A stretch of 64,000 nucleotides of DNA, from contig NZ_AP018207.1 of assembly GCF_002367995.1 (NCBI RefSeq), forward strand, positions 4,339,083 to 4,403,082. Reading direction: 5' to 3'. Positions 10,694-62,387 of this stretch are shown here, piece after piece. The first letter of the stretch is position 1. Every line of letters starts with the position of its first letter. The notes under the pieces were generated by a model. The model searched no databases. It was not told where the DNA came from and worked only from the letters and a program-made list of their open reading frames with translations. Source of the stretch: Calothrix brevissima NIES-22. GTDB lineage: Bacteria; Cyanobacteriota; Cyanobacteriia; Cyanobacteriales; Nostocaceae. The translations under genes and the position numbers were made by a program.

Positions 10694-12841
10694 CTACGGT
10701 GTGAGAAAATCTAAATGGTCGCCTGGTAAGGAACGTAACTCTTCTACTTTTCCTTCCATTTTCAATTTTCCCTTTTCTAAGAAAATAATCCAGTCAGCAC
10801 GCTCAATCACTCTGGGACGGTGGCTGATAATAATTGTTGTTTTGCCTGTTCTGTAAAATAGCAGTCTATCTAAAATTTCTGATTCACTACTGGGGTCAAG
10901 TCCAGCTGTAGATTCATCTAAAATTAGTATGGGTGGATTATGAACTATGGCGCGCGCTAGTGCTAGTCTTTGTCTTTGTCCACCAGAAATATTTGCGCCA
11001 AATTCTCCTAAAACTGTTTGATATGTGTCGGGTAATTTACTAATAAATTCGTCAGCGAGGGTAATTTGACAGGCGTTGACAATTTCTTCAAAACTGACAT
11101 TTGGAGAACCTATGCGGAAGTTTTCAATAATTGAGCGACTCCAAAAATGAGCATCTTGGGGAACTAGAACTACTTGTTTTCGTAATGATTCTAAAGATAA
11201 ATCTTGTTGGTTATAAATGCCATAGCGGATATTGCCAGATTGCACTGTATGTAAACCAGCAATTAATTTAGCTAAGGTACTTTTGCCACAACCTGATTTG
11301 CCAATTAAGGCAATAACTTTACCCCCAGGAAGGGTGACTGAAAAATCTTCTAATAAGTCTACCCTGCCAGCATAATAAAAATTTAATTTACTACAAATAA
11401 TATCTGTATTATCGGAAATATTTGCCCAAGGTTTCTGTGTATCTGAAGACGATTCAGGGGTACTGTCAATAACTTCTTGGATGCGGGTATTAGCAGTTTG
11501 TACTTGAGCAAATTCATCGACAATACCGATAATAAAACTAAATAGACCAGTAACATTACCAGTCATACTAGAAAATGCTAGTAATTGACCTATAGTTAAT
11601 TCTTTACTAATAACAAGTTGACTGCCGAATAGCAATAAAACTGTACTACCAATATTAGCAACTAGTCCAGAGAACTTCTGATTAATGATTTGAATATGGA
11701 TTGTTGTTAAAGATAATTTAGTTAAGCGGCGAAATCGGCTTTGTAATTCCTCCCAAAATTGTGCAGATGCGGTAGTAGTTTTCAGGGTTAATGCACCTTT
11801 AAAAATTTCTACTAACACCCCTTGGTTTTCGGCATCTAAAACCATATATTTACGAGTTTTTTGTTGCACAATAGGTAAAAAGACAATTGTACTTATGCTC
11901 ATTAAAACCGCAATTAATATAGAGAATAAGGATAATTTCCAACTGTAATAAAACATCAAGCATAAGCAAACTATCGCCATAAATAATTTGGTAGGAAACC
12001 CGATTACTCCTTGGGCAATGAAGCTATTGATCTTTTCAATATCTCTCAGTCTACTGGCTACTTCCCCACTACGACGAGCTTCGTAGTATTTCAAAGGTAA
12101 GTTTAATATTTTTTGTCCAAATTCTAACATTAACTTTAATTGGAAGCGTTGGGCAAAATTAGCAATTAGCATATTTTGCACCAACTCTAAGCTGCTGTTG
12201 ACAACGTGCATGACAATTACTGCTAATACTAGAGAGATCAGCAAATCAGAATCACGCCGCACTAAAACATCATCCGTGAGAATCTGTATCAGGAAAGGAG
12301 AGGCTAAAGACAATAAGCCAATTAATTGGGAAATTACCAAGGCTTCTAAAATCAAACCTCGGTATGGCAAGATACCCTGAACAATCTTTTCAAAAGTGTT
12401 AAGTTTGTCATCAGGTTCGGCAAAAAAACGATTTGCATCTGGTTGGAGTAATAACACTACTCCATTTTGCCAACCTTCAATGAGTTCCTGTTCAGAAAGA
12501 TAACGAAGACCTATTGCTGGGTCACCAATAATATATTTTTTACGACGCTGACCATACAAAACTACCCAGTGAAATCCTTTCCAATGGATAATCGCGGGTA
12601 GTGGCATTTGTGACAGTTTTTTGAGAAAATTTTCTGATGCTTTGCCAGTTCGAGTGTAAAGACCTAAAGCTTCTGTACCACGTCTTAAACCTAACAAAGT
12701 AGTTCCCAGTTGACCGCTACCAATTGCCTCGCGGATACGGTTAATAGTTAAATTACGCCCATAAAATTTGAGAATAGAAGCAACACAAGCTGCCCCACAG
12801 TCTTCTTCACTGTGTTGCATCACAACTGGGTATTTCTTCAT
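10694..12841 (-). CDS. peptidase-containing ABC transporter (C39 bacteriocin exporter)
   Basis: 715 residues with three domains in the order of double-glycine peptide exporters. The N-terminal C39 peptidase (1-135) has catalytic C15 (EEDCGAAC), oxyanion Q9, H91 (FHWVV) and D107 (GDPAI). A six-helix ABC membrane domain spans about 155-445. The nucleotide-binding domain has Walker A GKSGCGKST (514-522), signature SGGQ (619-622), Walker B ILILDE (638-643) and H674. It should cut a leader after Gly-Gly and export the peptide through a HlyD/TolC-type channel. Its substrate is probably the peptide at 13423-13668, and its adaptor the protein at 14540-16519. Confidence 0.95.
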   Translation of the reverse strand: MKKYPVVMQHSEEDCGAACVASILKFYGRNLTINRIREAIGSGQLGTTLLGLRRGTEALGLYTRTGKASENFLKKLSQMPLPAIIHWKGFHWVVLYGQRRKKYIIGDPAIGLRYLSEQELIEGWQNGVVLLLQPDANRFFAEPDDKLNTFEKIVQGILPYRGLILEALVISQLIGLLSLASPFLIQILTDDVLVRRDSDLLISLVLAVIVMHVVNSSLELVQNMLIANFAQRFQLKLMLEFGQKILNLPLKYYEARRSGEVASRLRDIEKINSFIAQGVIGFPTKLFMAIVCLCLMFYYSWKLSLFSILIAVLMSISTIVFLPIVQQKTRKYMVLDAENQGVLVEIFKGALTLKTTTASAQFWEELQSRFRRLTKLSLTTIHIQIINQKFSGLVANIGSTVLLLFGSQLVISKELTIGQLLAFSSMTGNVTGLFSFIIGIVDEFAQVQTANTRIQEVIDSTPESSSDTQKPWANISDNTDIICSKLNFYYAGRVDLLEDFSVTLPGGKVIALIGKSGCGKSTLAKLIAGLHTVQSGNIRYGIYNQQDLSLESLRKQVVLVPQDAHFWSRSIIENFRIGSPNVSFEEIVNACQITLADEFISKLPDTYQTVLGEFGANISGGQRQRLALARAIVHNPPILILDESTAGLDPSSESEILDRLLFYRTGKTTIIISHRPRVIERADWIIFLEKGKLKMEGKVEELRSLPGDHLDFLTP

Positions 12842-13422
12842 AATTAAAACAAGTTTTTATGTGGCGATTAGTACTGAGAATGAAATGATTGTTTAGAAAT
12901 TAGATTTGAAAAAAAATTTTGTATTTAAAGCTTGTAGTTTGAGTGTTTTCGCTCCAGATATAAGCAGTATACACACAGCTTATTATTGAGCCAAAAAATA
13001 AGATGAGCTTTCTTGCCTAATCAATAGGCTAGTTTTTTAAGTAGATTTGATTGAATAGCGATTAATCAATTTGGATTTTTAATTTATAAGAATCCAAAAG
13101 CTGAACTAATTAATGCATGAACTGGCTGTAAAAAATAGCTAAAAATATAGCTTTTACAACCAGCTAATGCTATGGTATGCATAAGCCATTAAACAACTAA
13201 GGCGATATAGAGTGCGGCTATCCCTATTAGCCGCGTCTCTACCTAAAGCTTATACAAACCATTTTGAATTACACTTAAGTAACAATTGGGACTGCCAAAT
13301 AACAAAACACCCAAGTTATTTTTTGTGGGATGGTGTTGGTGCCTTTTCAAGGTAATAAGTAGGCAAGATGCCCGTACCACAAGGTTGGATAAGTGATGTT
13401 GACTATCCCCTGATTGTGATTA
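12842..13422. other. AT-rich stretch between precursor peptide and exporter
   Basis: About 580 bases without a gene. It contains two hairpins: CTGGCTGTAAAA paired with TTTTACAACCAG around 13120-13163, and GCGGCTA/TAGCCGC at 13214-13234. The precursor gene and the exporter share a strand, so a transcript could cross this stretch, with the hairpins setting their ratio. That is inference. Confidence 0.5.
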
Positions 13423-13668
13423 TCAGCAGTATGATTTTGGAGGTTCACATACAGGTTGTGGAGGTGGGCACACAGGTTGTGGAGGTGGGCACACAGGTTG
13501 TGGTGCTACATAAACTGGTTTTGGCAAACACCAACTAAAAAGAAAACTCCAACTCCAACTTAGTAAACCAAAAGTACCACCTGAAATTGTTGATTGATTT
13601 TCATCAGACAATTCAGACAAGCAGCTTTCGTCAATAGACAGCAATTTATTTTCAGAGTTGATCGTCAT
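13423..13668 (-). CDS. double-glycine leader peptide with Cys/Pro heptad core
   Basis: An 81-residue precursor. The leader (1-31) has the canonical pattern SELSDENQSTISGG, with Gly-Gly at 30-31 where C39 peptidases cut. The predicted mature peptide is 50 residues. It begins TFGLLSWSWSFLFSWC and continues with a proline-rich tail whose cysteines fall exactly seven apart (C60, C67, C74, C81), plus C47. The tail repeat PPPQPVC is encoded by a 21-bp DNA repeat at about 13454-13502. The ribosome site AGGAAG (13675-13680) lies 6 nt before the ATG, so the start is secure. The exporter gene follows on the same strand. I know no named family with this core; bacteriocin, signal or surface peptide are all possible. 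Confidence 0.82.
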   Translation of the reverse strand: MTINSENKLLSIDESCLSELSDENQSTISGGTFGLLSWSWSFLFSWCLPKPVYVAPQPVCPPPQPVCPPPQPVCEPPKSYC

Positions 13669-13801
13669 GATAAACTTCCTGATTTGGGGATGTTAATTTT
13701 GATGTAGATGAGCTTTTATCCATTTTTATTAATTACAGATGTTAGAAAATTTATCTGTAACAAACAAAAATGTTGACATAATCGTGTAATTACAAAAAAT
13801 T

Positions 13802-13824
13802 CAGCCAAAATGGCTGTTTTATTT
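13802..13824. terminator. bidirectional Rho-independent-type terminator
   Basis: Perfect stem CAGCCA-AAA-TGGCTG. On the plus strand it is followed by TTTTATTT; on the minus strand by AATTTTTTG. It has no annotated gene directly upstream on either strand, which hints at a short unannotated transcript. Confidence 0.6.
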
Positions 13825-14291
13825 GTGTGATTACTATTGTTTCCTAAGCTCATGGCTATAAACCTACAGCATCTAAAACAAAAAGTACAGTCTTTTTGAA
13901 GTTTTCTAAATACTATGTTGTTAAGTAGTAATTTAAGCATATTTTATTTGGCGAGCATCGGCAGTCAAGAATAAATATAGATAGCGTTAGTCATTGATTA
14001 TTAAAGGATTACGCGGATTTTAATGTTTAGTTTTTTACTAGTGATATTGCAAAAATTAATGTTTATTTTTATACAGAAAACACATTTATTTATTATCAAG
14101 ATACACTGTAAAAATTTAATAAAATTTTGATAAATACAAAAAACGCCAAGGATGATATATTTTTTCGGTAATAGAAAAATAACGTTTCACCAAGAAGAAA
14201 TAACTTAAATTTGTGATGCAGAAACATCCGATTTTATTTGAATGTACATTAGTACTACAAATTAAGTGTGTGGCAAAGTTTTGTGGAACAT

Positions 14292-14478
14292 TTTTTAACC
14301 TGTTGACTATATGCTTAAATAACAAAGAGGCTAGTACCAGCGATCATTTTTTGATATAAATTTTTAGGAAAATGTTACTAGCTAATTAGTCAAAAAAATA
14401 AATTTTGTTCAATATTTTTTTAATCTCTTGACTATATGCTTAAATAACAAAGAGTCAGTACCAGCGATCATTTTTGGA
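14292..14478 (+). repeat. duplicated ~60-bp block upstream of the receiver-HlyD gene
   Basis: Two near-identical copies begin 125 bp apart: TTGACTATATGCTTAAATAA at 14303 and again at 14428, each followed by an AACAAAGAG stretch and AGTACCAGCGATCATTTTT. TTGACT resembles a -35 hexamer. The copies could be tandem promoters or regulator sites for the gene starting at 14540. Confidence 0.75.
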
Positions 14479-14539
14479 TGCAATAGCATAAAAATGTTGT
14501 TAAAAAATTAATAGAAAATAAATTTTTATATAAAAATAT

Positions 14540-16519
14540 ATGATTAGAGTTTTGCTGGTTGACGACCAACAAGCTGTGAGAGATTACTTAAGATCATTGA
14601 TTGAAAAAGAAACAGATCTTGAAGTAGTTGGTGTTGCAGATAATGGAAAGACTGCTATTCTCAAAGTCGCTAATTTACAGCCAGATGTGGTTATTCTCGA
14701 TATGGTAATGCCGGAGATGGATGGGATTAATGCGACAAAGATTATTAGTGAAAGATTTCCGAAGACGAAAGTTTTGGTGTTGAGTGGTTATGACAAGCAT
14801 CAATATATTCAGGCATCGTTAAATGCGGGAGCAAGTGGTTATATACTCAAAGATGCATCGCCAGAAGAACTGAGAGATTCAATTCGCTTGGTGGAAAAAG
14901 GCTACACTCAGTTAGCACCTGGTTTAATTAGTAAAATTATTCCGCAACAGCCAATATCGGATGCAGAAATTGTCAGTATTCAAAAAAGTTTGGATGTTCA
15001 GAGTTCAGGAATAGTTCTCCAAGAAAATACTCCTACTTTCTTGGATGTAATTCAGACAGAGGAACTTTTACCGAATACAACTCGTTGGGTAGAAGTGGGA
15101 GGACTGTTTTTAATTGCAACTGTTGCAACAGCAGTGATTTTATCTGCGGTGATTCAATATAAAATAGTTGTGAAAGCACCTGCGAATGTGCGTCCGGCGG
15201 GAGAAATACGTTTAGTACAAGCAGCACAAGAAGGAACAGTGAAGAGGATTCTTGTGCAAGAGAATCAAGTGGTAAAAGCACAAGATATTATTGCCATTAT
15301 CGATGATAGCCAACTACAAATTAAAAAAAGTCAGCTTTTAGGTAATATTCAGCAAAACGAAATGCAACTGATGCAACTGGATGCGCAAATTCTGGCTGTC
15401 GATAGACAAATAGTAGCAGAAACAGAGCGCAACCAAAGAGCGATCGCATCGGCGACAGCAGATTTGCAACGTACCCAAAGAGAATATCAACAAAGCACTG
15501 TATCCAGTAGCGGACAACTAGAAGAAGTCCAGGCGAATATTAAAATTGCTCAGGATGAATTACAAAAAGCCGAATTTGATTTTAAATCAATGCAAGCGAA
15601 TTTGAAAGCCACAGAAGCAGCCTTGAAAGCGGCGAAACTAAAACGCGATCGCTATTTGAGTATTGCGACATCTGGCTCAATTTCTAAAAATCAATTGGAA
15701 GAGGTGCAACTAGCATTAGAACAGCAACAACAATCTTTATTATCTCAAAAATCAAGTTTAGAAGCTCAAAAGCAAGTTATCGAAAGACAACAACAAGCTG
15801 TAGCAGCAGCTAAGAGTAAATATAAACCAGCAGCCGCAGCAACGCATCCTAGTGATGCTATTCTGGCAATGGCACAGGAAAAAATTGCCCAAGAACGTGC
15901 CGCAGGTGTAGGAAGTTTGGCACGCTTGAAGCAGGAAGAAAATAGTTTGAACCAGCGAAAACTGGAAATTCAAAATATAATTAACAGTGCCAAAAAAGAC
16001 TTAGGACAAATAGAAAAACAACTACAATTAACGATAATTCGTTCTCCGGAAACAGGGACTATTTTGAAGTTAGAACTGCGAAATCCTCAGCAATTAGTAC
16101 GCCCAGGGGAAGCGATCGCGCAAATAGCACCTTCTGAGGCTCCTTTGGTAGTCAAAGCTAATGTCAGCGTGGAGGATATTAGCAAAGTAAAGGTTTGTAA
16201 ATCGCCAAAAGTTACTGATTGCCAAGAAGGTAAAGTGCAAATGCGAATTTCTGCTTATCCTTATCCAGATTATGGGATTTTGCAGGGTGCTGTGAGGAGT
16301 ATTAGTGCGGATGTGATTGATGAACCGCAAAATAATCCTATGATTGCAACTGCGCCTTATTATGAGGTGACTATTGAGCCGGAAAAACTTTATTTAGAAA
16401 AAGGCGATCGCTCTTATCCCATTCAACCAGGAATGGAAGTAACGGCAGAAATTATTTCCCAAAAAGAAACTTTATTAACATTTATTCTGAGGAAAGCACG
16501 GCTGCTGACTAATTTATAG
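14540..16519 (+). CDS. receiver domain fused to HlyD-type secretion adaptor
   Basis: 659 residues. Residues 1-125 form a NarL-type phospho-receiver with D8/D9, phospho-acceptor D54 (VVILDMVMPEMDG), S82 and K104. Where a LuxR-type DNA-binding domain would follow (after RLVEKGYTQLAPGLISKII), the chain continues to a membrane helix (about 186-206). Then come a biotinyl-lipoyl-like segment (GEIRLVQAAQEGTVKRILVQENQVVKAQD), a long coiled coil (about 265-500) and the second lipoyl half plus beta-barrel typical of HlyD. The adaptor should bridge the C39 exporter to an outer-membrane channel, with the receiver in the cytoplasm. No histidine kinase is adjacent. No good ribosome site is seen before the ATG. 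Confidence 0.9.
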   Translation: MIRVLLVDDQQAVRDYLRSLIEKETDLEVVGVADNGKTAILKVANLQPDVVILDMVMPEMDGINATKIISERFPKTKVLVLSGYDKHQYIQASLNAGASGYILKDASPEELRDSIRLVEKGYTQLAPGLISKIIPQQPISDAEIVSIQKSLDVQSSGIVLQENTPTFLDVIQTEELLPNTTRWVEVGGLFLIATVATAVILSAVIQYKIVVKAPANVRPAGEIRLVQAAQEGTVKRILVQENQVVKAQDIIAIIDDSQLQIKKSQLLGNIQQNEMQLMQLDAQILAVDRQIVAETERNQRAIASATADLQRTQREYQQSTVSSSGQLEEVQANIKIAQDELQKAEFDFKSMQANLKATEAALKAAKLKRDRYLSIATSGSISKNQLEEVQLALEQQQQSLLSQKSSLEAQKQVIERQQQAVAAAKSKYKPAAAATHPSDAILAMAQEKIAQERAAGVGSLARLKQEENSLNQRKLEIQNIINSAKKDLGQIEKQLQLTIIRSPETGTILKLELRNPQQLVRPGEAIAQIAPSEAPLVVKANVSVEDISKVKVCKSPKVTDCQEGKVQMRISAYPYPDYGILQGAVRSISADVIDEPQNNPMIATAPYYEVTIEPEKLYLEKGDRSYPIQPGMEVTAEIISQKETLLTFILRKARLLTNL

Positions 16520-17147: not shown

Positions 17148-18848
17148 ATGCCACTGCCTATTGTGTCTGTTCCGATAAAGAAAACCAAGAAACCGTCTTT
17201 GCTGCTGATACTGTCTTGTGCTTGGATATTGATAGGTTTAGGAAGTGCGGCATATTGGCTATTAACTCGGTTTCAACTATTGTCTCGAGATTTGCCAGTA
17301 GGGGCCACAATTATTCCTCAAGATGCTTTATTGACGGTTTCTTTAACTACAGATCCGAAACAATGGCAGCAATTGCGACAGTATGGGACAAAAGAAACCC
17401 AAGCAGAACTGGATCGAAATTTAGTGAAGCTGCGCGATCGCTTTCTCACGAATAATGGTTATGATTTCCAAAAAGATATTCAACCTTGGGTAGGTAATGA
17501 AGTCACTTTAGCAATTCTCGCACCCCAAACAAGTCAACCTGCACCTAAACCAGTTTCGACTAACGCAGAGGCTGTTAATAGCCAGCAGTCGATGGTGATG
17601 GTTTTGCCAATCAAAAACCCTGAAAAAGCGAAAAGCCTGTTAGCACAACCAAAAACTTTAAAACAAAGTCAATGGATTGACCGCACATATCAGGGTTTTA
17701 CAATTAAACAAACCGATGGTCAAACTGGGGAAAACCTTTCCGCTACAGTATTAAATGGACAATTCTTAATTATTACTGATAATCCCAAAGCGACAGAAAG
17801 AGCAATTGATGCTTATAAAAATAAAACTTCCTTAGCTAATACAGCAGGATTCGCGTCCAACTTGCCGAAAATTGCTAATTATCAACCTTTTGCTCAGTTT
17901 TATATTAATGTACCCACAGCTGCGAGGATAGCCGCAGCAGCACCCAATCGCCAATTACCTGCGCAAGTTTTGGCGCAATTGCAAAATAACCAAGGCTTGG
18001 CAGGGACAATTAACTTAGAACCAGAAGGAATACGTTTAAAAGGCGTTTCTTGGCTAAATCCGAATAGTCAGCGAGTGCTAGCAGTGGAAAATAATGCAGG
18101 GAGAATGCAAAGCCTAGTCCCAGCAGAAACCTTAATGATGCTTTCTGGTGGGAATTTACAAAGGCTTTGGGACGACTATGAAAGAACATCGCGAGGAAAT
18201 CCCCAGTCGCCAATTCTTCCCGAACAATTACGAGGTGGCGTGAAATCCTTAACAACCCTGGATTTGGATCGGGATTTGCTGCGGTGGATGAAAGGCGAGT
18301 TTTCTTTATCGGTAATTCCCAACACCCCAAAAGATGCAGCAACAGCAGATTTTCGGGCTGGATTGCTGTTTATGGTACAGGCAAGCGATCGCAATTTAGC
18401 GGAAGCATCCATCAAACAGCTTGATGAAGTGATGAAAAATCAATACCAGTTCCAAATTAAACCTGCTACGGTTGCAGGTAAAACCGTTACCAACTGGGTT
18501 GCGCCTTATGGTACCTTAACGGCTACTCATGGCTGGTTAGATGGAGACATTGCTTTTTTAATCGTGGGTGCGCCAATTGCCGATAAAATCGTTCCCAGGC
18601 CTAGCATTACTTTAGCTAGCAGCACACCTTTTAAACAAACAGTACCGGCAGAACCTAATCCCACAAACGGTCAATTTTTCTTGGATGTGGAACAGACAGC
18701 GAAAAATTTCCCCTTACCGACTTTATTTCCTCGTCAAAAAACTTGGTTAGCCGCTACCCGTTCGATTGGTGTAACAACAGCTGTCAGCGATAATCGCAGT
18801 ACTCGCTATGATATATTTTTCGCACTGAAGAAAGCGGATCGTTCTTAG
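17148..18848 (+). CDS. DUF3352 domain-containing protein
   Basis: 566 residues with an N-terminal membrane anchor (about 17-40, LLLILSCAWILIGLGSAAYWLL) and a large exported domain matching the cyanobacterial DUF3352 type. It starts with DLPVGATIIPQDALLTVSLTTDPKQW and has repeated motifs such as NPEKAKSLLAQ and GFTIKQTD. The function is unknown. It is probably anchored in the inner or thylakoid membrane and faces the periplasm or lumen. ccsA follows 203 bp downstream on the same strand, but a block of short repeats lies between them. Confidence 0.85.
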   Translation: MPLPIVSVPIKKTKKPSLLLILSCAWILIGLGSAAYWLLTRFQLLSRDLPVGATIIPQDALLTVSLTTDPKQWQQLRQYGTKETQAELDRNLVKLRDRFLTNNGYDFQKDIQPWVGNEVTLAILAPQTSQPAPKPVSTNAEAVNSQQSMVMVLPIKNPEKAKSLLAQPKTLKQSQWIDRTYQGFTIKQTDGQTGENLSATVLNGQFLIITDNPKATERAIDAYKNKTSLANTAGFASNLPKIANYQPFAQFYINVPTAARIAAAAPNRQLPAQVLAQLQNNQGLAGTINLEPEGIRLKGVSWLNPNSQRVLAVENNAGRMQSLVPAETLMMLSGGNLQRLWDDYERTSRGNPQSPILPEQLRGGVKSLTTLDLDRDLLRWMKGEFSLSVIPNTPKDAATADFRAGLLFMVQASDRNLAEASIKQLDEVMKNQYQFQIKPATVAGKTVTNWVAPYGTLTATHGWLDGDIAFLIVGAPIADKIVPRPSITLASSTPFKQTVPAEPNPTNGQFFLDVEQTAKNFPLPTLFPRQKTWLAATRSIGVTTAVSDNRSTRYDIFFALKKADRS

Positions 18849-18985
18849 GAAGGGATAAGGAAAGGGGGACAAGGAGGACAAGGGAGACAAGGGGGACAAG
18901 GAGGACAAAAAAAGTTATGAATGATACTCAATGCCCAATGCCCCATGCCCCATGCCCCATGCCCAATGCCCAATGCCCAATATAA
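18849..18985. repeat. 9-bp and 7-bp short tandem repeats
   Basis: GGGACAAGG/AGGACAAGG nonamers followed by ATGCCCC/ATGCCCA heptamers (about eight units). These are the same units as at 46840-46898 and 62279-62351. Confidence 0.85.
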
Positions 18986-30131: not shown

Positions 30132-31382
30132 TTAAATTTCCGAGCAGATTTGACTAATGTCTTTCAAATAGAAATTTTTGGCAGAGTCTAGCATAAAATC
30201 CCAATACTCAGTAAAGAATAATGGGTAAGATTCACCACTGAGCACATATCCTTTAGGTGACAGTACAAAGTTTGTCATTTTAGCATTTATCTGGAATCTA
30301 AAAATATAGTTATTCTCGTCTTGGTAAAAATTAAGCGGTGCAATTTCCATGACTTCAGGGTGATAAATGATATCAAAATTATTACCAAAATCGCTTTGAA
30401 AAATCTGGCATTGCTGAGAGTAAAATGGCTCTTTAATATAGGCTTGCATCTTGTTAAATTTTTTCATTGTCCAGTCACGTTGATACTTGATAAACAATTT
30501 ACTTACTTGCTCAACTAGTTCTGATTTAGCAAAAAGATGCTGATATTTTTCTTCGTCAATTTCTGAGGCGATTGGTATGTGTTGCCAAATCTCCTGATTT
30601 TTTACATAGCGCAGAGAGTAGCGATTAGTAAATTTCGGATTAATTTTAGTAGTAAATTGTATTAAGTCAGAATTATCGCTAAATTGTTTACCGTAGAAAC
30701 GCACAAAGTTATAAAGTTCTCTAAAAAAGAGAACTGGTAATAAAACAAGCACTAAGGTTAAAGTTGCTAGGATTAGTTTTGGGAGAGTCTTGGCGTTAAT
30801 AGGCGTGTATACTCTCCCGTTTCCACTACGCGATCCATAACTTCCTCGAGATCCACCACCACCAGATCCGCCACCGCCACCTTTGTTATGAACTAAAATA
30901 CCCTCGGCATAAAAATTATGATTGGGATTAACAGATAACAGATTATAGACAGTGACAGGTTTTTGAATATAGTCAATGCTAGAAATAACAGGAGTATCGC
31001 CAGCAAATCCAATCAGGCGATCGCCTAATTTAAGTTGTTGCGTTTGCAGCAACTTTACCCCTGTAGCAGTTTTGATATAAAAGGGATGAGTAGCTGTGAC
31101 TTTAATTTTGTGATTGATTACATAATATTCAGGAGAGGAAACTACTTGAATTTCACTAATCTCCCCAATCTCCGGACTTTGCTTGGTGAAGTTATAACTA
31201 ATAATGCTGTCACCGGGATGTAATTTTTCAATAGCTTTAACACCATCAACAGTTAAAATAGCAGTCCCAGGAGCAAAACAACCTCCACGAGCATAAGCAG
31301 AATCAGTTATCCAAAAAGCAAAACATAAGATAAAAGTTAGACTAATACATAAGATTTTGGTTAAAGCATAACGATTTTTCAT
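30132..31382 (-). CDS. Tim44-like membrane protein with intein-like Hint domain
   Basis: 416 residues. A signal peptide (1-32, ending YARGG) is followed at once by a Hint domain: block A CFAPGTAILTVDG starting at C35, block B TATHP with H99, and the C-terminal block NFYAEGILVHN ending at H165-N166. Next come a Gly-rich linker (GGGGGSGGGGSRGSYGSRS), a membrane helix (about 199-220) and a Tim44-like domain (about 245-416). Without residues 35-166 the N-terminus reads like ordinary bacterial Tim44-like proteins (signal peptide, Gly/Ser linker, TM). The residue after HN is Lys, so this matches a B-type bacterial intein-like domain rather than a standard intein. Its function is unknown. Confidence 0.85.
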   Translation of the reverse strand: MKNRYALTKILCISLTFILCFAFWITDSAYARGGCFAPGTAILTVDGVKAIEKLHPGDSIISYNFTKQSPEIGEISEIQVVSSPEYYVINHKIKVTATHPFYIKTATGVKLLQTQQLKLGDRLIGFAGDTPVISSIDYIQKPVTVYNLLSVNPNHNFYAEGILVHNKGGGGGSGGGGSRGSYGSRSGNGRVYTPINAKTLPKLILATLTLVLVLLPVLFFRELYNFVRFYGKQFSDNSDLIQFTTKINPKFTNRYSLRYVKNQEIWQHIPIASEIDEEKYQHLFAKSELVEQVSKLFIKYQRDWTMKKFNKMQAYIKEPFYSQQCQIFQSDFGNNFDIIYHPEVMEIAPLNFYQDENNYIFRFQINAKMTNFVLSPKGYVLSGESYPLFFTEYWDFMLDSAKNFYLKDISQICSEI

Positions 31383-38751: not shown

Positions 38752-41700
38752 TTAATTGAGGGGAAGGTGAATGATAAACTCTGTACCATTACCGGGAGCA
38801 GAATTACATTCAAGAGTACCAGCATGTTTTTCGGTGATAATTTGATGGCTGATCGATAATCCTAATCCTGTACCTTTACCTTCTGCTTTAGTAGTAAAGA
38901 AGGGATGGAAAATTAGCTGCTGTAATTCTTGTGAAATACCGAGTCCATTATCTGCAATGGTAATTACTGCATAGTCGTTTTCTAATGCTGTTTTAATCAT
39001 AATAATATTGGGTTGTTTTTCTAAATCAGAATATTTCTTACCTGTATTAGACTCTTCTAAAGCATCAATAGCATTGGCTAAGAAGTTCATAAATACTTGA
39101 TTGAGTTGTCCTAAATAACAGGGAATTTGTGGTAAATTACCATATTCTTTAATTACCTGAATTGCTGGACGATTAGATTTAGCTTTGAGGCGATGTTGTA
39201 GGATCATTAATGTGGTATCTAAACCTTTATGAATATCGCTCAGTTTTCTTTGTCCATCATCGTTGCGTGAATAATTGCGTAACGATTGCATGATATCTTG
39301 AATGCGATCGCTTCCTAGTTGCATTGAATTAATCATCTTCGGTAAATCTTTTAGCAAATACTCTATCTCTATTTCTTCTCCATGCTCCTGAATCTCAGCA
39401 GGTGGGTTTGGGTATTGTTGCTGGTATAAATTTAAGTGGGCAATTAAATCTGTAATGTACTGTTCAGTATAGGAGAGACTACCACTGATGAAACCTAGCG
39501 GATTGTTGACTTCGTGGGCAACACCGGCTACTAGTTGTCCTAAAGACGAGATTTTTTCGGTTTGTACGAGTTGCGCTTGCGTTCGCTGGAGTTTTTCGAG
39601 GGATTGTTGCAATTGCTGGGATTTTTCTTGCTCGCGGGCGTAAAGGCTGGCGTTTTCAATGGCTATGGCGGCTTGGATTGATAATAGCTTGAGAATTTCT
39701 CGGCGATCGCTTGTAAAGGCATCGGTAGTTAAGTTATTCTCTAAATATATAATGCTAATCATTTTGCCTTGATACAAAATTGGCGTACATATTACAGATT
39801 TTGGTTGATGCTGAAGAATGTAAGCATCGGTGTTATAAATACTTGCTTCGCTGGCATTACCTAATATTAAGGTTTCCTGGGTTCTGGCAACATAGTTAAT
39901 TAAAGAAGCGGGAACATCTGCACTGCAATCTACAGGTGTAGATTCCATAATTATCAAAGTATCATTTTGTTCTTTATCAATGGCTTTGATAAATAGCTCG
40001 CCTGCTTGTTCTAAAATTAAACATCCCTTTTGCGATGCGGTATTTTCTAAGAGAATATGCAGCAGTTTTCTTAAAAGATTATCGAGAATAATTTCACTAG
40101 AAATGGCTTCTGCTGCTTTCATTACCGTTACCCAATCTAAGGTATTGTTAGTGCTGTGAGTATTATTGGTATTTCTGAGGATGTTTTGGTGAGCGGTAAT
40201 TGATGTTAAGCAATTATCGATAATTACTTGTTGATTTTTCGCTATAAATTGAGTGCGAGAAATTAAATTAGGATAGCGGTTTTCTAAATCTGTGACTTTG
40301 GCGATCGCACCCCATTTAATGTAACCATAATAAGCCTCTGTCATATAAGTTTTAGCAATTTTATTTTTACCTAAATCTAAGTAAAATATGGCAGCACGTT
40401 CGTTTGCTAAAGACTCTTCTTGAATGTAACCATTTTCGCCAGCACCAAAAATTGCAGCATCATATAAATCCATAGCTGCTAAAATTTGTCCTTGAATTCT
40501 GGCGATTTCTGCTGCTACTAAATCATATTTATGTTGAAAGTTACAGGGTGCATTTTCTGCCCAATGCTTTAATTTTTGTTGATTAGCTTGGACTTGTGCT
40601 AACATTTCGCTTTGTTTATCAACTGCGACATTTAAATAATTAGCTAACAGCGCTAAAGAATAGTAGAAGTAGTAAACAGCAGCTAATAATATACCTAAAG
40701 TCGCTCTTTGATAAGGAGCAGCTTTTTGACTATAATTAATAGCTGAATCATATTCGCCAAATAAATACAGCATCATTATCTTGGCAATATAAGCAGCAAA
40801 TAGCCCTTGATAATATTTAGTTTGCTCAAACCAAGAAAAAATATTTGGATCGGCAAAACTGGCTGTAATTAAATCACATGGTTTATCAACTTCACCTTGA
40901 AGATTTAAAACTAATTGTCCCCAAATATTAGCATATTTGACATAGGGCTGCTGTTTTAACTTGCGCAGTAGTGCAGTATATTCTTTTTGGCGCTGATTCA
41001 CTATTTCTAAGTTTTCTCCTGAGAGAAATAGTTGCGTACAATAAGCAATTACAGTTAAACCAGCATGGGCAATATTCCCTACTTCTAAACCGCTATGAAT
41101 TCCTTTAATTAAGGGATTAAATGTAGATTTAATATGTTCTTTACCTGGTAAAGCATAGGTACTAACTACCATATATACTTTAACTTCTAATTCTTTAGCG
41201 GGATATTGTGCTAATAAGCTAAAGGCTATTTTACCGGAGTGATAAGCAGCAATTGGATCGCCAATAATCGATTGCAAAAATGCAGTATAAGCACCATATA
41301 CATAAGATGCTAATGGCGAATGACCATGTTCTAAACATAAATTCACCATTGTTAAAACTATCTGGGGATAAATATCTGGTGCAGATTGATAAGCTGCTGC
41401 TGAAATTTTGCTAAGAATGCGAATACTTGCTAAATGACAAGGGTGAGTCATTTCGGCAAAAGTCGCTAAATCTGAGAGCGCTGGTAGTTGCGGTAAATTA
41501 TGGCGATCGCCTGTATAATCTACTAAAGTAATTCCTAACATTTCTACTGCTTTTATCCCCACTTTCACGCCTTGAAATTGTTGAGATTGGGCAATATGCA
41601 TGTCAATTATCAGTTCATAAACTTTGACTAAATCCAGTAAATTAGCTGCTTGTTGAATGACAATATCTGCTAATTGCTGTGCTGTTTCAAAGTTGGTTGT

Positions 41701-44142
41701 TAAATACTCTGCTTCTGCACCTTCAACATAAATATTTAAAGTTAAATTATATTGAAATTGCCAACTATCTACTGCTAAAAGTTCTCGCGCAATCCGCAGA
41801 TAACTCACAGCAGGTTCGTGTGCTGCGGCTGCTTTGGCTTTATGTCCAGCAGTTAAATTTAATTGTGCTAATTCATCTTTTTGTGGCTGTGTTGAAAAAA
41901 GCTCAATAGCATAATTAAATTGATTGACAATATCAAAAATATGCGCCTCAATTTCTGCTTTTGATTGGCTTTGCAGGAGTAATTCACCAATTTTAAAATG
42001 GGTAGATTGTTTCTGGGATTCTAATATAAGAGAATAGGCTGCTTGTTGGACGCGATCGTGTAAAAAACGGTATGTAATTTGCGAATTATCAAACCCCATC
42101 ATGTCTAACTCTTCATCAGCAAACAGTAGGGGAATGTTGTATTCATTACTCAATGGTAAAATTAATCCCGCTTGTAAAGCTGGTTCTAAAGCAGCAGCTA
42201 CGAGAAGCGATCGCTGTTCGCTAACTGTTGCTAAAATATTTAAACTGAACCGCGCACCAATACAAGCTGCTAATTTCAGGGTATTTTGGGTAGTCTCTGG
42301 TAATTTTGCAATATTACCTGCGAGTAAATCAACTACACTTTTATCGGCAATTCCTGTAGCTTGAATCTGTTGTAAATCCCATTGCCAACAATTTTGAGTA
42401 AAATCAAACTTGAGTAGTTGATCCTGATGTAATGTTTTTAAAAGTTGGGTGAAGAAGAAGGGATTACCTTGAGTTTTATTAAATAATAATTCGGCTAAAG
42501 ATAAGCTATTTTTACCATCATTTAACGTGTCTGCCAAAATTTGCTGTATATGGTTTAAACCCAAGGGTGACAGCACAATATTATTAATGATGGTTCCAGC
42601 TTGAGCAATATCCTCTAATGTTTTCAGTAATGGATGACTACCAGTCACCTCATTATCTCGATACGCGCCAATTAGTAGCAAATATTGCGTATCTGGATTA
42701 GTCGCCAACACTTGAATGAAATCTAGGGAAGCAGAATCAGCCCACTGTAAATCATCGAGAAATATAGTTAAAGGATGTTCCCTTTGACTAAAAACTTGAA
42801 TAAAAGCTTGAAATACTTGATTAAATCGGTTTTGCGCTTCTTTTAAACCTAGTTGCGGTATTAAAGGCTGTTTACCAATGATGCGTTCAACTTCGGGAAT
42901 CACATCAATAATTACTTGTCCGTTACCATTCAAAGCTGATAGTAACTTCTGTTTCCAAACTGCTAATTGTGCATTAGTTTCTGTAAGTAACTGTTGGATG
43001 AGGTTTTGTAATGCTTGAATTAAAGAAGCATAGGGAATATTACGCTGAAATTGATCGAATTTACCACGAATAAAGTAACCCCGTTGGCGAACAATCGGTT
43101 TATGAACTTCGTTGACTAAAGATGATTTCCCAATCCCAGAGTAACCAGATACCAGCACCAACTCAATTTTTGCTTGTGCTGCTGCTACCCGTTCAAACGC
43201 AGCTAATAAAGTTAATACTTCCTTCTCCCTACCGTAGAGTTTTTGGGGGATGAGAAGATTTGCAGTGCGATCGCGTTCTCCAGGGGTAAAGTTAGATATT
43301 GTCCCCTGAGTTTTCAGTTGCTCTAAACACAATTGTAAATCCGCCAATAGCCCAGCAGCTGTTTGATAGCGTTCTTCAGCATTTTTCGCCATTAGTTTCG
43401 CAATAATTGCTGCTAAAACATCCGGTACTTCTGGATTCAACTGTTGAATCGGCGTGGCTTGTTTAGCAATATGGTAGTGAATTAACTCTAAAGGATCGTG
43501 ACTGGGAAATGGTAGTTTTTCGGTAAGTATTTCGTAAAACGTCACCCCCAATGCATAAAAGTCACTGCGATAATCCACACAACGATTCATTCGCCCTGTT
43601 TGTTCTGGTGACATATATGCGAGAGTCCCTTCCAATTGGTTGGGATTGGTAATTTGCGGAGTTTCTTTATCCAACCGGGAAGCAATACTAAAATCGGTGA
43701 GTTTTACTTCTTGAGATTGGGGATTGATGATGATATTAGCTGGCTTAATATCTTTGTGGACAATGTGTTGCTGATGTAGACAGTCAATTGTTCTCGCTAG
43801 GGAAACTGCAATTGTGAGAAAACACAGGAGAGAAGGTTTTTCTGTGGAAAGCCATTGTTTGAGACTAATACCACCAAAGTCTTCGCAAACTAGAACTAAA
43901 CGATGTTCGTAGTTTTCCAGGCGATAAACTTTCACCAAACCAGCTAAATCGAGATTTTCTCTGATTTTATATTCGTGTTTGAGGCGAAAAATCTGTTCTA
44001 GGCTGGGATAGTCAGCTTTGAGGACTTTGAGAATTACTGGTTGATTGTTTATTTGAGAAGTTGCTCTGTAGAGATTAGTGTCTATTCCTTCATGTACAAC
44101 TTCTGCAACTACATACCCTGGTATCCCGAACAATGGCGACAC
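38752..44142 (-). CDS. Ser/Thr kinase - AAA ATPase - GAF - histidine kinase
   Basis: 1796 residues, the trifunctional signalling architecture known from Anabaena HstK-type proteins. Kinase domain (8-265): K39, E57, HKDIKPAN (129-136) and MSPE; the magnesium motif reads DFS (150-152) instead of DFG. AAA/STAND-like ATPase: Walker [10 protein letters not shown] (333-341), later [13 protein letters not shown] long helical, TPR-like region fills about 560-1270. A GAF-like domain (about 1330-1490) and a coiled coil precede the histidine kinase: H1543 ([10 protein letters not shown]), N box [11 protein letters not shown]1 ADNGLGIS, G2 GKGTGLGLS. It is cytoplasmic and has no adjacent response regulator. 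The ligand and output are unknown. Confidence 0.95.
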
Positions 44143-60884: not shown

Positions 60885-62387
60885 TCAACTCTTACGCAGT
60901 AGTCTGCTAGAACGTTCTTGTAAGATTCCCACGACGCTATTTTTAATGGAATCTTTTTTCGCAATAACTGACGCTGCGGTTTGTCCAGTAGATGTGATTT
61001 TGTTTTTCACTGCTACTGCTAAAGGTTGGACTGACCATTTACCCGCATCGAAGCGTAGTAAACCGAATATTTGCTGAGATTTGGCTATTATGTCTAAATT
61101 TAATTCTGATAAACTGCTGATACGTTCATTAGCAATGCTGAGTTCTCCCGCATCACCCCAACTTAAAGCAATATTCTCGTCATTTTTCACGACTTGATAA
61201 TTACTGAGATATATCGGTTCCGCGATTTGGATGGGATGGCGATCGCACGCGGCGACTGTAGAATAAATCAAGCTATTACCTGTATTCTCAGCAAAAAATT
61301 CCGCCGCCCGCTTCATTAAATTATAATTTTCACCAAGTTCGCCTTGACCTTGCCACAATAAATCTCCGGTAGGTAGCAAGGGTACATCTGTAATTTTCAA
61401 AACGCGATTTTGGGCGAAAGCATCTAATAAAACAGCCGCATTGCTAAATAAAAGCCAAATTTGCTCATTATTAATTGCATCTACCTTATAAGCTGATTGG
61501 GTAACTCGCACCAGTTGAGTTTGATTGTTTGCATTTAGCAACCCGTAGGCTGTGAAACTAACTAAATTGGCGTGTTGGCGTAAATCTAAACCTAAAATTT
61601 CTAAATTACCCGATATTGGCTGTGATTTTGGTAAAATAGCTGGGCTTACAGTCCCTAACATTGCCTGAGTCCACAAATCAACCCAACGATATTTGGGAAT
61701 TGCTTGGCTATCAGCAACGGGAAGATTTCCCATCAACTCATTAAAATAGCCAGTCAGTAAAGCCGCTTGTCTGATTAATAAAGGTTCCGCTTGGATTTGT
61801 TCCAGTGTCCCTAAAAACGGAACCAAAGTTGCGATATCCAAACGTGCATAACCGACTAAAGCAATTTCCATCAACCAGTGACGCACACTAGCTAACAAGA
61901 CTTTGACATTATTCGGCGGTTCTTCAGCTTCATTTTTCTGTTCTACTTCAGCTATGGCTGCGCGTCCTAACAAACTCCTGACTTGAGATTGTAATGTATC
62001 AAATAGCGCTCCTTGAATTGCCGCGCGCACAGTCGCTAACACCGCAAAATGCTTATCTACAAACTCATTTGTGCTAATCGCCTGAGTAGATTCAGTTAAA
62101 GATGATTGTAAAGGCGTGCCAGTAAATACACGCTCTACAGATTGTAAGGTTTGTAAATGTTGCTCATCTAAATTCGCAAAACCAGTAATAAAACACTCAT
62201 CTAAACTCGCAATCAACTCGAATATTTCTTGATTGCTTTCGCTGATTTGATGCAATGCGCCGGGGAAAGCCATGTGTTGGAGACAAGGAGGACAAGGGGG
62301 ACAAGGAGGACAAGGGGGACAAGGAGGACAAGGGGGACAAGGAGGACAAGGGTTCATCGCGTCTCTGCCCAATGCCCAATGCCCCAT
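60885..62387 (-). CDS. DUF5691-like helical protein with optional (CPP)7 head
   Basis: 500 residues from ATG 62387, or 463 from ATG 62273 (MAFPGALHQI). The core (from about residue 40) is all-helical, and family DUF5691 is my best guess from the neighbourhood. The extra N-terminus of the long form is MGHWALGRDAMNP followed by seven Cys-Pro-Pro triplets, encoded by 9-bp repeats at 62279-62351. The upstream ATG lies 9 nt after the SWIM stop and has TAGGG before it, so coupling would favour the long form; the downstream ATG has no ribosome site. Which start is used cannot be decided here. Confidence 0.6.
   Translation of the reverse strand: MGHWALGRDAMNPCPPCPPCPPCPPCPPCPPCPPCLQHMAFPGALHQISESNQEIFELIASLDECFITGFANLDEQHLQTLQSVERVFTGTPLQSSLTESTQAISTNEFVDKHFAVLATVRAAIQGALFDTLQSQVRSLLGRAAIAEVEQKNEAEEPPNNVKVLLASVRHWLMEIALVGYARLDIATLVPFLGTLEQIQAEPLLIRQAALLTGYFNELMGNLPVADSQAIPKYRWVDLWTQAMLGTVSPAILPKSQPISGNLEILGLDLRQHANLVSFTAYGLLNANNQTQLVRVTQSAYKVDAINNEQIWLLFSNAAVLLDAFAQNRVLKITDVPLLPTGDLLWQGQGELGENYNLMKRAAEFFAENTGNSLIYSTVAACDRHPIQIAEPIYLSNYQVVKNDENIALSWGDAGELSIANERISSLSELNLDIIAKSQQIFGLLRFDAGKWSVQPLAVAVKNKITSTGQTAASVIAKKDSIKNSVVGILQERSSRLLRKS
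62279..62351. repeat. GGACAAGGG/GGACAAGGA nonamer array
   Basis: Eight units of 9 bp, alternating GGACAAGGG and GGACAAGGA. On the minus strand it is read in frame as (Cys-Pro-Pro)n at the start of the DUF5691-like gene. Confidence 0.95.

What the first reader, a model, noticed from the sequence alone, without database searches (positions are those of the whole stretch)
10694..16519. Self-contained peptide export locus with a receiver-bearing adaptor
A C39-peptidase ABC exporter, a double-glycine precursor on the same strand and a divergent HlyD adaptor form a complete processing and export set except for the outer-membrane channel. The precursor core fits no class I can name, and no modification enzyme is adjacent. 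Each part is seen in sequence; that they work together is inferred from proximity and the C39/GG match.
Basis: partly seen in the sequence, partly recalled or inferred. Interest (0 to 1): 0.78.

Follow-up and report, generated by a model that had tools for sequence, protein, structure and literature searches.

The report
Signal receiver fused to peptide-export adaptor
A Nostoc-type cyanobacterium carries an ordinary small-peptide export locus whose membrane adaptor has gained a phosphorylation-type signal receiver, and in close relatives that adaptor has survived intact after the exporter beside it decayed.

Summary
The three genes are real and exactly placed. The C39 ABC exporter and double-glycine precursor are a new member of a well-known cyanobacterial kind: 203 of 217 family genomes (own included) have a strong exporter homologue; 14 of 14 loci fetched on exporter match alone have an HlyD gene within 4 kb; double-glycine ORFs flank 17 of 23 exporters examined. 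The unusual part is the adaptor: a NarL-type receiver fused to a complete HlyD protein. It is full-length in 6 of 8 held genomes of the genus and in no listed row of the other 209 family genomes. In the 5 other carriers the exporter survives only as a decayed C-terminal fossil, no precursor was found, and the adaptor is intact and under purifying selection. So 'self-contained' is wrong: the adaptor outlived its exporter and probably serves others. The convincing relatives of the precursor (4 genes, 3 genomes) are not near C39 exporters. Best reading: phosphorylation of the cytoplasmic receiver controls adaptor assembly or engagement, gating peptide export; the gating is inferred, not shown. 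New variant of a known kind.

The parts
10694..12841 (-). C39-peptidase ABC exporter, 715 aa; cysteine, His/Asp and ATPase motifs intact
   Evidence: nearest listed relative 70% identical in G193
13423..13668 (-). double-glycine precursor, 81 aa: 31-aa leader plus 50-aa core (hydrophobic/Trp head, then PPPQPVC repeats; 14 Pro, 5 Cys)
   Evidence: homologues in 3 genomes at E 7e-9 to 5e-10; 21-nt tandem repeat in the DNA
14540..16519 (+). receiver-HlyD fusion adaptor, 659 aa
   Evidence: full-length orthologues in 5 of 7 other held genomes of the genus
14540..14914 (+). NarL-type receiver domain (aa 1-125) with D8, D9, D54, S82, K104
   Evidence: these residues are identical in the six aligned sequences; Foldseek LiaR/DesR/VraR receivers
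14915..15010 (+). linker (aa 126-157), low model confidence from 134 on; 56-59% identical between window and relatives against 87-91% for the receiver
15011..16516 (+). complete HlyD-type adaptor (aa 158-659): one transmembrane helix at 181-204, lipoyl half, long coiled-coil hairpin, beta-barrel
14291..14479 (.). duplicated block upstream of the adaptor gene (39 nt + 23 nt, spacing 124-125), no other copy found in the genome

Best explanation
The locus exports a small processed peptide through a C39-type type I secretion conduit, and the adaptor's receiver makes the conduit responsive to a two-component signal. Shown from sequence: a C39 exporter with intact catalytic motifs, a precursor with a double-glycine leader, an adaptor with a receiver N-terminal to its single transmembrane helix and with invariant phosphorylation residues, and adaptor constraint that outlived the exporter. 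Inferred: the C39 domain cuts after GG-31 and the 50-residue core leaves through exporter, adaptor and a TolC-like channel encoded elsewhere. Inferred with less support: a histidine kinase phosphorylates D54; as in other NarL-family receivers this changes receiver dimerisation, which, tethered by the linker at the inner membrane, promotes or blocks adaptor oligomer assembly or exporter docking. In relatives that lost the exporter the same adaptor would serve one of the other C39 exporters. The peptide is more likely a surface, matrix or communication peptide (EbfG-like) than a classical bacteriocin, but this is the weakest step.
For: Domains and motifs. Leader resemblance follows exporter kinship: the sister exporter (G193, tree support 1.0) has a double-glycine ORF whose last 22 leader residues match 11 of 22; 13 other leaders from exporter or adaptor loci match 4-9 over 16-22 residues. 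HlyD neighbours 14 of 14 loci fetched on exporter match alone. Fusion conserved in 6 of 8 held genus genomes with identical receiver catalytic residues. Receiver dN/dS mean 0.105 and HlyD part 0.294 among the five exporter-less relatives. dS of the fusion between window and those relatives (0.59-0.62) lies within the range of six neighbouring genes (0.50-0.99, two of the five relatives compared), which fits vertical inheritance. Each exporter-less genome has 2-5 short C39 exporters with no related HlyD within 8 kb. TolC-type genes exist elsewhere. Precedent: EbfG1-4/PteB (PMC4997328, outline and passages).
Against: No kinase partner identified; no expression, phosphorylation or secretion data. 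The HlyD part evolves faster in exporter-less genomes (0.294) than three other HlyD groups in the same five genomes (0.149, 0.188, 0.091), which fits partial relaxation. Exporter and adaptor trees disagree on nearest relatives, so they were not always a pair. Over the last 12 leader residues the sister exporter's ORF leads only narrowly (8 of 12; L134 has 7). The precursor has no orthologue in the other genus genomes at E<=0.01 (one weak 30% hit, E 0.003), and its leader relatives lie away from C39 exporters.
Confidence: 0.5

Rival explanations
1. Ordinary bacteriocin-type or lanthipeptide-type export locus; the receiver is a neutral passenger of a gene fusion and does not regulate export.
For: Precursors near cyanobacterial C39 exporters are described as putative bacteriocins (PMC3140520, passages). 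The adaptor's nearest relatives in the tree (L134, L135; support 0.953) sit in loci with LanM genes, and the sister exporter sits beside a HopA1/APH pair of the kind that dehydrates class V lanthipeptides (PMC9486802, abstract and passages).
Against: Receiver catalytic residues are identical in the six aligned sequences and its dN/dS is lower than that of the HlyD part (0.105 against 0.294); a passenger should drift. No modification gene is adjacent here.
Confidence: 0.25
2. In the exporter-less relatives, and perhaps here too, the fusion is mainly a membrane-tethered receiver (phosphate sink or signalling scaffold); the HlyD half is largely an anchor.
For: Receiver more constrained than the HlyD half, and HlyD dN/dS raised relative to three other HlyD groups; exporter lost in 5 of 6 carriers.
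Against: The HlyD reading frame is intact over its full length in all five, with dN/dS well under 1 (0.22-0.44); adaptor-less C39 exporters are available in each genome.
Confidence: 0.15
3. The precursor ORF is not a functional substrate of this exporter: a leader-bearing peptide that happens to lie beside it, or a decaying gene.
For: No orthologue in the genus at E<=0.01 apart from a weak hit, and relatives in other genomes unlinked to exporters.
Against: Leader plus first core residues (T-L/F-G-L-L) conserved with genes in 3 other genomes; the leader resembles that of the sister exporter; same strand, upstream of the exporter, with AGGA 8 nt before the ATG.
Confidence: 0.1

Closest known systems
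Cyanobacterial C39/HlyD 'bacteriocin' gene clusters (Wang et al. 2011, PMC3140520)
   Same: Short-type C39 ABC exporter, HlyD, double-glycine precursors with very diverse cores (passages read)
   Different: The passages seen describe HlyD as a single-domain protein; here it carries a receiver
EbfG1-4 / PteB of Synechococcus elongatus PCC 7942 (PMC4997328, PMC9981879)
   Same: Small double-glycine proteins cut and exported by a C39 ABC transporter; a secreted EbfG1 peptide is Pro-rich (TTYNPPSYPYPSYPK)
   Different: Core similarity not tested; biofilm role not shown here; no receiver-adaptor in the passages seen
HlyD-family adaptors (TIGR01843; structures EmrA, MacA)
   Same: Lipoyl half, hairpin, barrel; Foldseek best hit EmrA 4tko, E 1.6e-17, though TM-scores are low (0.24 by query, 0.42 by target) over the flexible model; TIGR01843 E 9e-44
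   Different: TIGR01843 score 150 bits is below the curated cut-off of 208.65; extra N-terminal receiver
NarL/LiaR/DesR/VraR response regulators
   Same: Receiver fold and catalytic residues; LiaR 5hev, DesR 4le0 and VraR 7ve6 among the top Foldseek hits
   Different: The DNA-binding output domain is replaced by a membrane adaptor
Class V lanthipeptide clusters (LanK/LanY; PMC9486802)
   Same: The sister exporter's locus in G193 has HopA1 (E 2e-56) and APH (E 5e-10) genes between exporter and HlyD
   Different: No such genes adjacent at the window locus; Ser/Thr are few in the window core

Membership tests
C39 double-glycine peptide exporter | C39 peptidase + ABC membrane + ABC ATPase in one chain | tested here: met
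   all three above curated cut-offs
C39 double-glycine peptide exporter | Catalytic Cys/His/Asp and ATPase motifs | tested here: met
   (C15; HWVV at 91; GDPA at 106; Walker A, signature, Walker B, H-loop)
C39 double-glycine peptide exporter | Cleaves and exports a double-glycine precursor | not testable with these tools
   needs mass spectrometry
NCBIfam peptide cleavage/export ABC subfamilies (TIGR01193, TIGR03796) | Score above curated cut-off | tested here: not met
   375.8 against 523.85; 430.7 against 853.3
Double-glycine precursor | Short acidic leader with hydrophobic -12 and -4 and GG at -2/-1 | tested here: met
   position -7 is Gln rather than hydrophobic
Double-glycine precursor | Member of a named precursor family (NHLP, Nif11, lanthipeptide, others) | tested here: not met
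   no Pfam or NCBIfam match at E<=10
HlyD-family adaptor | Lipoyl half, hairpin, barrel, single N-terminal transmembrane helix | tested here: met
   the lipoyl Pfam matches are below their own cut-offs (24.7 against 29.8; 20.5 against 22.1), HlyD_3 is above
HlyD-family adaptor | TIGR01843 curated cut-off | tested here: not met
   150.1 against 208.65 bits
Response-regulator receiver | Receiver fold with acidic pair, phospho-Asp, Thr/Ser, Lys | tested here: met
Response-regulator receiver | Phosphorylated by a cognate histidine kinase | not testable with these tools
   needs biochemistry; no partner kinase was identified
EbfG/PteB-like matrix peptide system | Product in biofilm matrix or on cell surface, export dependent on C39 Cys | not testable with these tools
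   only an anatomical parallel

The most novel reading that the evidence does not exclude
A type I secretion adaptor under direct post-translational two-component control: a phosphorylated cytoplasmic receiver gates assembly of the export conduit, and the same adaptor has been conserved in relatives as a shared, signal-controlled adaptor for other C39 exporters after its own exporter decayed.
Probability: 0.35. Interest if true: 0.78.

Novelty: new variant of a known kind. Interest (0 to 1): 0.52.

Why it matters
Two-component control of efflux and type I export is, to my knowledge, normally transcriptional. A receiver built into the adaptor would be direct control of the export machine, and the genus offers a natural experiment: one genome with exporter, peptide and receiver-adaptor, five with the receiver-adaptor and an exporter fossil, two with an empty site. 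Four literature searches combining HlyD or adaptor terms with receiver terms listed 3, 0, 2 and 1 papers, five different papers in all. I opened passages in three of them (PMC8277102, of which only the first 300,000 of 747,799 characters are held; PMC13125312; PMC4971617) and saw no such fusion; PMC12487129 and PMC5985334 were seen as listings only.

Tried and rejected
Fusion as an artefact: rejected, the same 658-659-residue frame is open in six genomes. Fusion elsewhere: a 296-aa query over 388 class genomes found only the window genome at E<=1e-50 (distant or split matches could be missed). A scan of the 240 loci then held (some overlapping) found the receiver+HlyD combination only in the window genome and the five relatives; that is a check of held DNA, not a survey. 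Two rows with N-terminally extended matches (G143 from residue 37, G140 from 72) were fetched; the extension is a 24% chance match in the upstream exporter. Rows starting at 137 and 139 (G166, G163) were not examined. LanM in the own genome: PF13575 gave no match but no control rang either, so it is inconclusive. Weak precursor hits in 13 genomes were set aside: 12 at E 5e-4 to 0.01 were not followed up, and G138 (E 2e-6) proved to be a match in an intergenic GGGCATTG-type repeat with no leader. A first leader pattern missed the window peptide because its hydrophobic positions were set wrongly and was replaced. Promoter-like sites are no more frequent than in shuffles; three terminator-like sites were found against 0.7 expected and not pursued. 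Species-tree placement of the two empty-site genomes is weak (63% bootstrap), so gain of the locus after their split and loss in them cannot be told apart. The fossils differ in length (L117 keeps more), so one shared loss is likely but not proven. The paper search on Pro-rich double-glycine peptides (listing only) showed nothing that I followed.
Full report
What is there. The window lies in a 9.26-Mb genome, by its kinship a Nostoc-type cyanobacterium: named genomes carrying the same fusion are Nostoc linckia FACHB-104 and Nostoc carneum NIES-2107. All three genes stand at the stated coordinates. The exporter (715 aa) has C39, ABC-membrane and ATPase domains above curated cut-offs and intact catalytic motifs. 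The precursor has a 31-aa leader and a 50-aa core with a hydrophobic, Trp-containing head and a tail of PPPQPVC repeats (14 Pro, 5 Cys). The adaptor (659 aa) is a receiver (Pfam E 1e-28) followed by an HlyD protein.

The export set is ordinary. Of 217 family genomes, own included, 203 have an exporter homologue at E<=1e-150; the own genome has nine C39 matches, six of them strong. Among 14 loci fetched on exporter similarity alone (L124, L228-L240), all 14 contain an HlyD gene within 4 kb. Double-glycine leader ORFs occur at 17 of 23 exporter loci examined (41 ORFs in 230 kb), 0 in 220.5 kb of exporter-free DNA, and 1 in five shuffles. This is a description rather than a blind test: the pattern was tuned after seeing some leaders; the 23 loci are those 14, the window, and eight chosen for the adaptor or as own-genome paralogues; and the control was cut so as to leave out the unlinked precursor relatives in L125-L127, which the same pattern would be expected to hit. 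Of the six misses, L122, L134 and L135 have such ORFs under the looser pattern, L123 has a 40-aa one, and L130 and L132 have none that I found. Such clusters were described in 2011 (PMC3140520, passages read).

The precursor. No Pfam or NCBIfam model matches. In 217 genomes 17 have a match at E<=0.01, but apart from the window only G019 (two tandem genes), G021 and G024 are convincing (E 7e-9 to 5e-10); G138's match is a repeat artefact and 12 weaker ones were not followed up. The convincing ones share the leader (11 of 12 residues before the cut for G024) and the first core residues T-L/F-G-L-L; their tails are Ser/Gly-rich. They stand alone, in the same gene neighbourhood in all three genomes, without C39 or HlyD genes in the 2-10 kb held on either side. 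The exporters listed for those genomes lie elsewhere. So the leader family works, if at all, with an unlinked exporter there. At the window locus, pairing with the exporter is supported by position and by leader resemblance to the ORF beside the sister exporter (11 of 22; 13 other leaders picked from exporter or adaptor loci match 4-9 over 16-22 residues; over the last 12 the lead is narrow, 8 against 7 for L134). Among exporters 65-66% identical, L232, L235, L236 and L237 have precursors with Pro-rich repeat cores of another sequence and L231 a Pro/Lys-rich one, while L233 and L234 do not show this clearly. So repetitive Pro-rich tails recur in this part of the exporter family. A secreted EbfG1 peptide of Synechococcus elongatus is also Pro-rich (PMC4997328, passages); EbfG4 is found on the cell surface and in the matrix, and EbfG1-3 form amyloid (PMC9981879, abstract and passages). 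That is my reason for preferring a matrix or surface peptide over a bacteriocin; it is an analogy.

The adaptor. The receiver is an addition to a complete HlyD protein: outside the fusion carriers the listed alignments mostly begin between residues 149 and 174 (the exceptions are told in Tried and rejected), where HlyD proteins of receiver-less relatives start. Full-length matches (1-659, 77-80% identity) occur in G012, G013, G014, G015 and G018; G016 and G017 lack the fusion, and none of the listed rows for the other 209 genomes spans it (the table is truncated at its weak end). D8, D9, D54, S82 and K104 are identical in all six aligned sequences. The AlphaFold model has a confident receiver (mean pLDDT about 88 over residues 1-120), a low-confidence linker, a helix at 181-204, and a hairpin over about 257-497; overall pTM is 0.37, so domain arrangement is not predicted. 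Foldseek finds EmrA/MacA adaptors for one half (low TM-scores) and LiaR/DesR/VraR receivers for the other.

History of the locus. The five other carriers are syntenic with the window on both sides, but between the chorismate-lyase-like gene and the fusion they have only 850-1196 bp (my scripts and notes call this gene CpcT, which Pfam corrects). That gap holds a decayed remnant of the exporter's C-terminus (residues about 612 or 643 to 715, pieces 41-71% identical, same place and orientation). In all five the best match among the 23 exporters compared is the window's own, and the remnants carry stops and frameshifts. No convincing trace of the precursor was found there (best E 7.1). The exporters listed for those genomes are 60-63% identical to the window's, so its orthologue is not elsewhere in them. 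G016, G017 and the outgroup G193 have the two flanking genes adjacent with none of the three genes between. Synonymous divergence of the fusion between window and carriers (0.59-0.62) lies within the range of six neighbouring genes, at its lower side (0.50-0.99, measured against two of the five carriers). So exporter and fusion were most likely together in the ancestor of the window strain and the five, and the exporter was lost in the five.

Selection after the loss. Among the five exporter-less genomes (ten pairs) dN/dS averages 0.105 for the receiver (0 to 0.21) and 0.294 for the HlyD part (0.22 to 0.44). Three other HlyD groups in the same five genomes average 0.149, 0.188 (both with an exporter adjacent) and 0.091 (stand-alone). 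The fusion is therefore still selected, somewhat less strictly in its HlyD half. Pairwise counting is crude and pairs are not independent. Each of these genomes has 2 to 5 short C39 exporters without a related HlyD within 8 kb (long exporters, weak C39 matches and HlyD matches above 1e-60 were left out, and G016 and G017 were not included). Partners in trans are therefore available.

Modularity. In the exporter tree the window groups with G193 (support 1.0); in the HlyD tree the window adaptor groups with L134/L135 (0.953), not with G193. L134 and L135 have LanM genes (DUF4135 + LANC); G193 has a HopA1/APH pair between exporter and HlyD, the type shown to dehydrate a class V lanthipeptide, with a cyanobacterial precursor group noted in that paper (PMC9486802, abstract and passages). 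Exporter and adaptor thus look combined from different sources, and no modification gene is adjacent here.

Mechanism. The receiver precedes the only transmembrane helix, so by the usual HlyD topology it faces the cytoplasm, beside the exporter's ATPase and C39 domains. Receivers of this family change dimerisation on phosphorylation, and HlyD-type adaptors act as oligomers (both from general knowledge). The simplest link is that phosphorylation alters adaptor assembly or docking. This is inferred. The outer-membrane step would use one of the OEP proteins encoded elsewhere (two strong genes).

Verdict. An ordinary export set with an unusual adaptor. The fusion and its survival without the exporter are the real finding.

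Noticed in passing
window 30132-31382 (-): 416-aa protein with a signal-peptide-like start and a HINT domain (PT-HINT E 3.6e-13) followed by a Gly/Ser spacer: a self-processing-type domain in an apparently exported protein.
   Followed up: partly
window 14291-14355 and 14416-14479: Near-perfect duplicated block 125 bp apart upstream of the receiver-adaptor gene; no other copy found in the genome. In two exporter-less relatives (L116, L119) parts of both copies align to one site.
   Followed up: partly
L129 6388-7317 (own genome C1, about 3.71 Mb): A Ser/Thr protein kinase gene (Pkinase E 8e-41) lies between the exporter and the HlyD gene of a paralogous locus: a second phosphorylation-type protein beside peptide export in the same genome.
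   Followed up: no
L124 10217-12609 (G193): HopA1 and APH genes between exporter and HlyD: probable cyanobacterial class V lanthipeptide locus with a Ser/Lys-rich double-glycine precursor at 12904-13065.
   Followed up: partly
G012 C1:7526093, G013 C1:7696360, G014 C130:55884, G015 C74:43657, G018 C1:3081991: A stand-alone HlyD gene without a short C39 exporter within 8 kb in all five exporter-less genomes (in G014 the contig ends 1 kb away), under strong constraint (dN/dS 0.091).
   Followed up: partly
window 38752-44142 (-): 1796-aa protein that reads like a Ser/Thr kinase - ATPase - GAF - histidine kinase fusion (from its sequence; no domain search run); a possible but untested phosphate donor some 22 kb from the adaptor gene.
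   Followed up: no
window 60885-62387 (-) and 18845-18973 (-): Intergenic repeats that read as PCPPCPP run into the listed N-terminus of one ORF; the true start may be further in.
   Followed up: no
G000 C1:5523356-5524877: Another short C39 exporter of the genome lies beside a weak outer-membrane-channel match, with no related HlyD gene within 8 kb.
   Followed up: no
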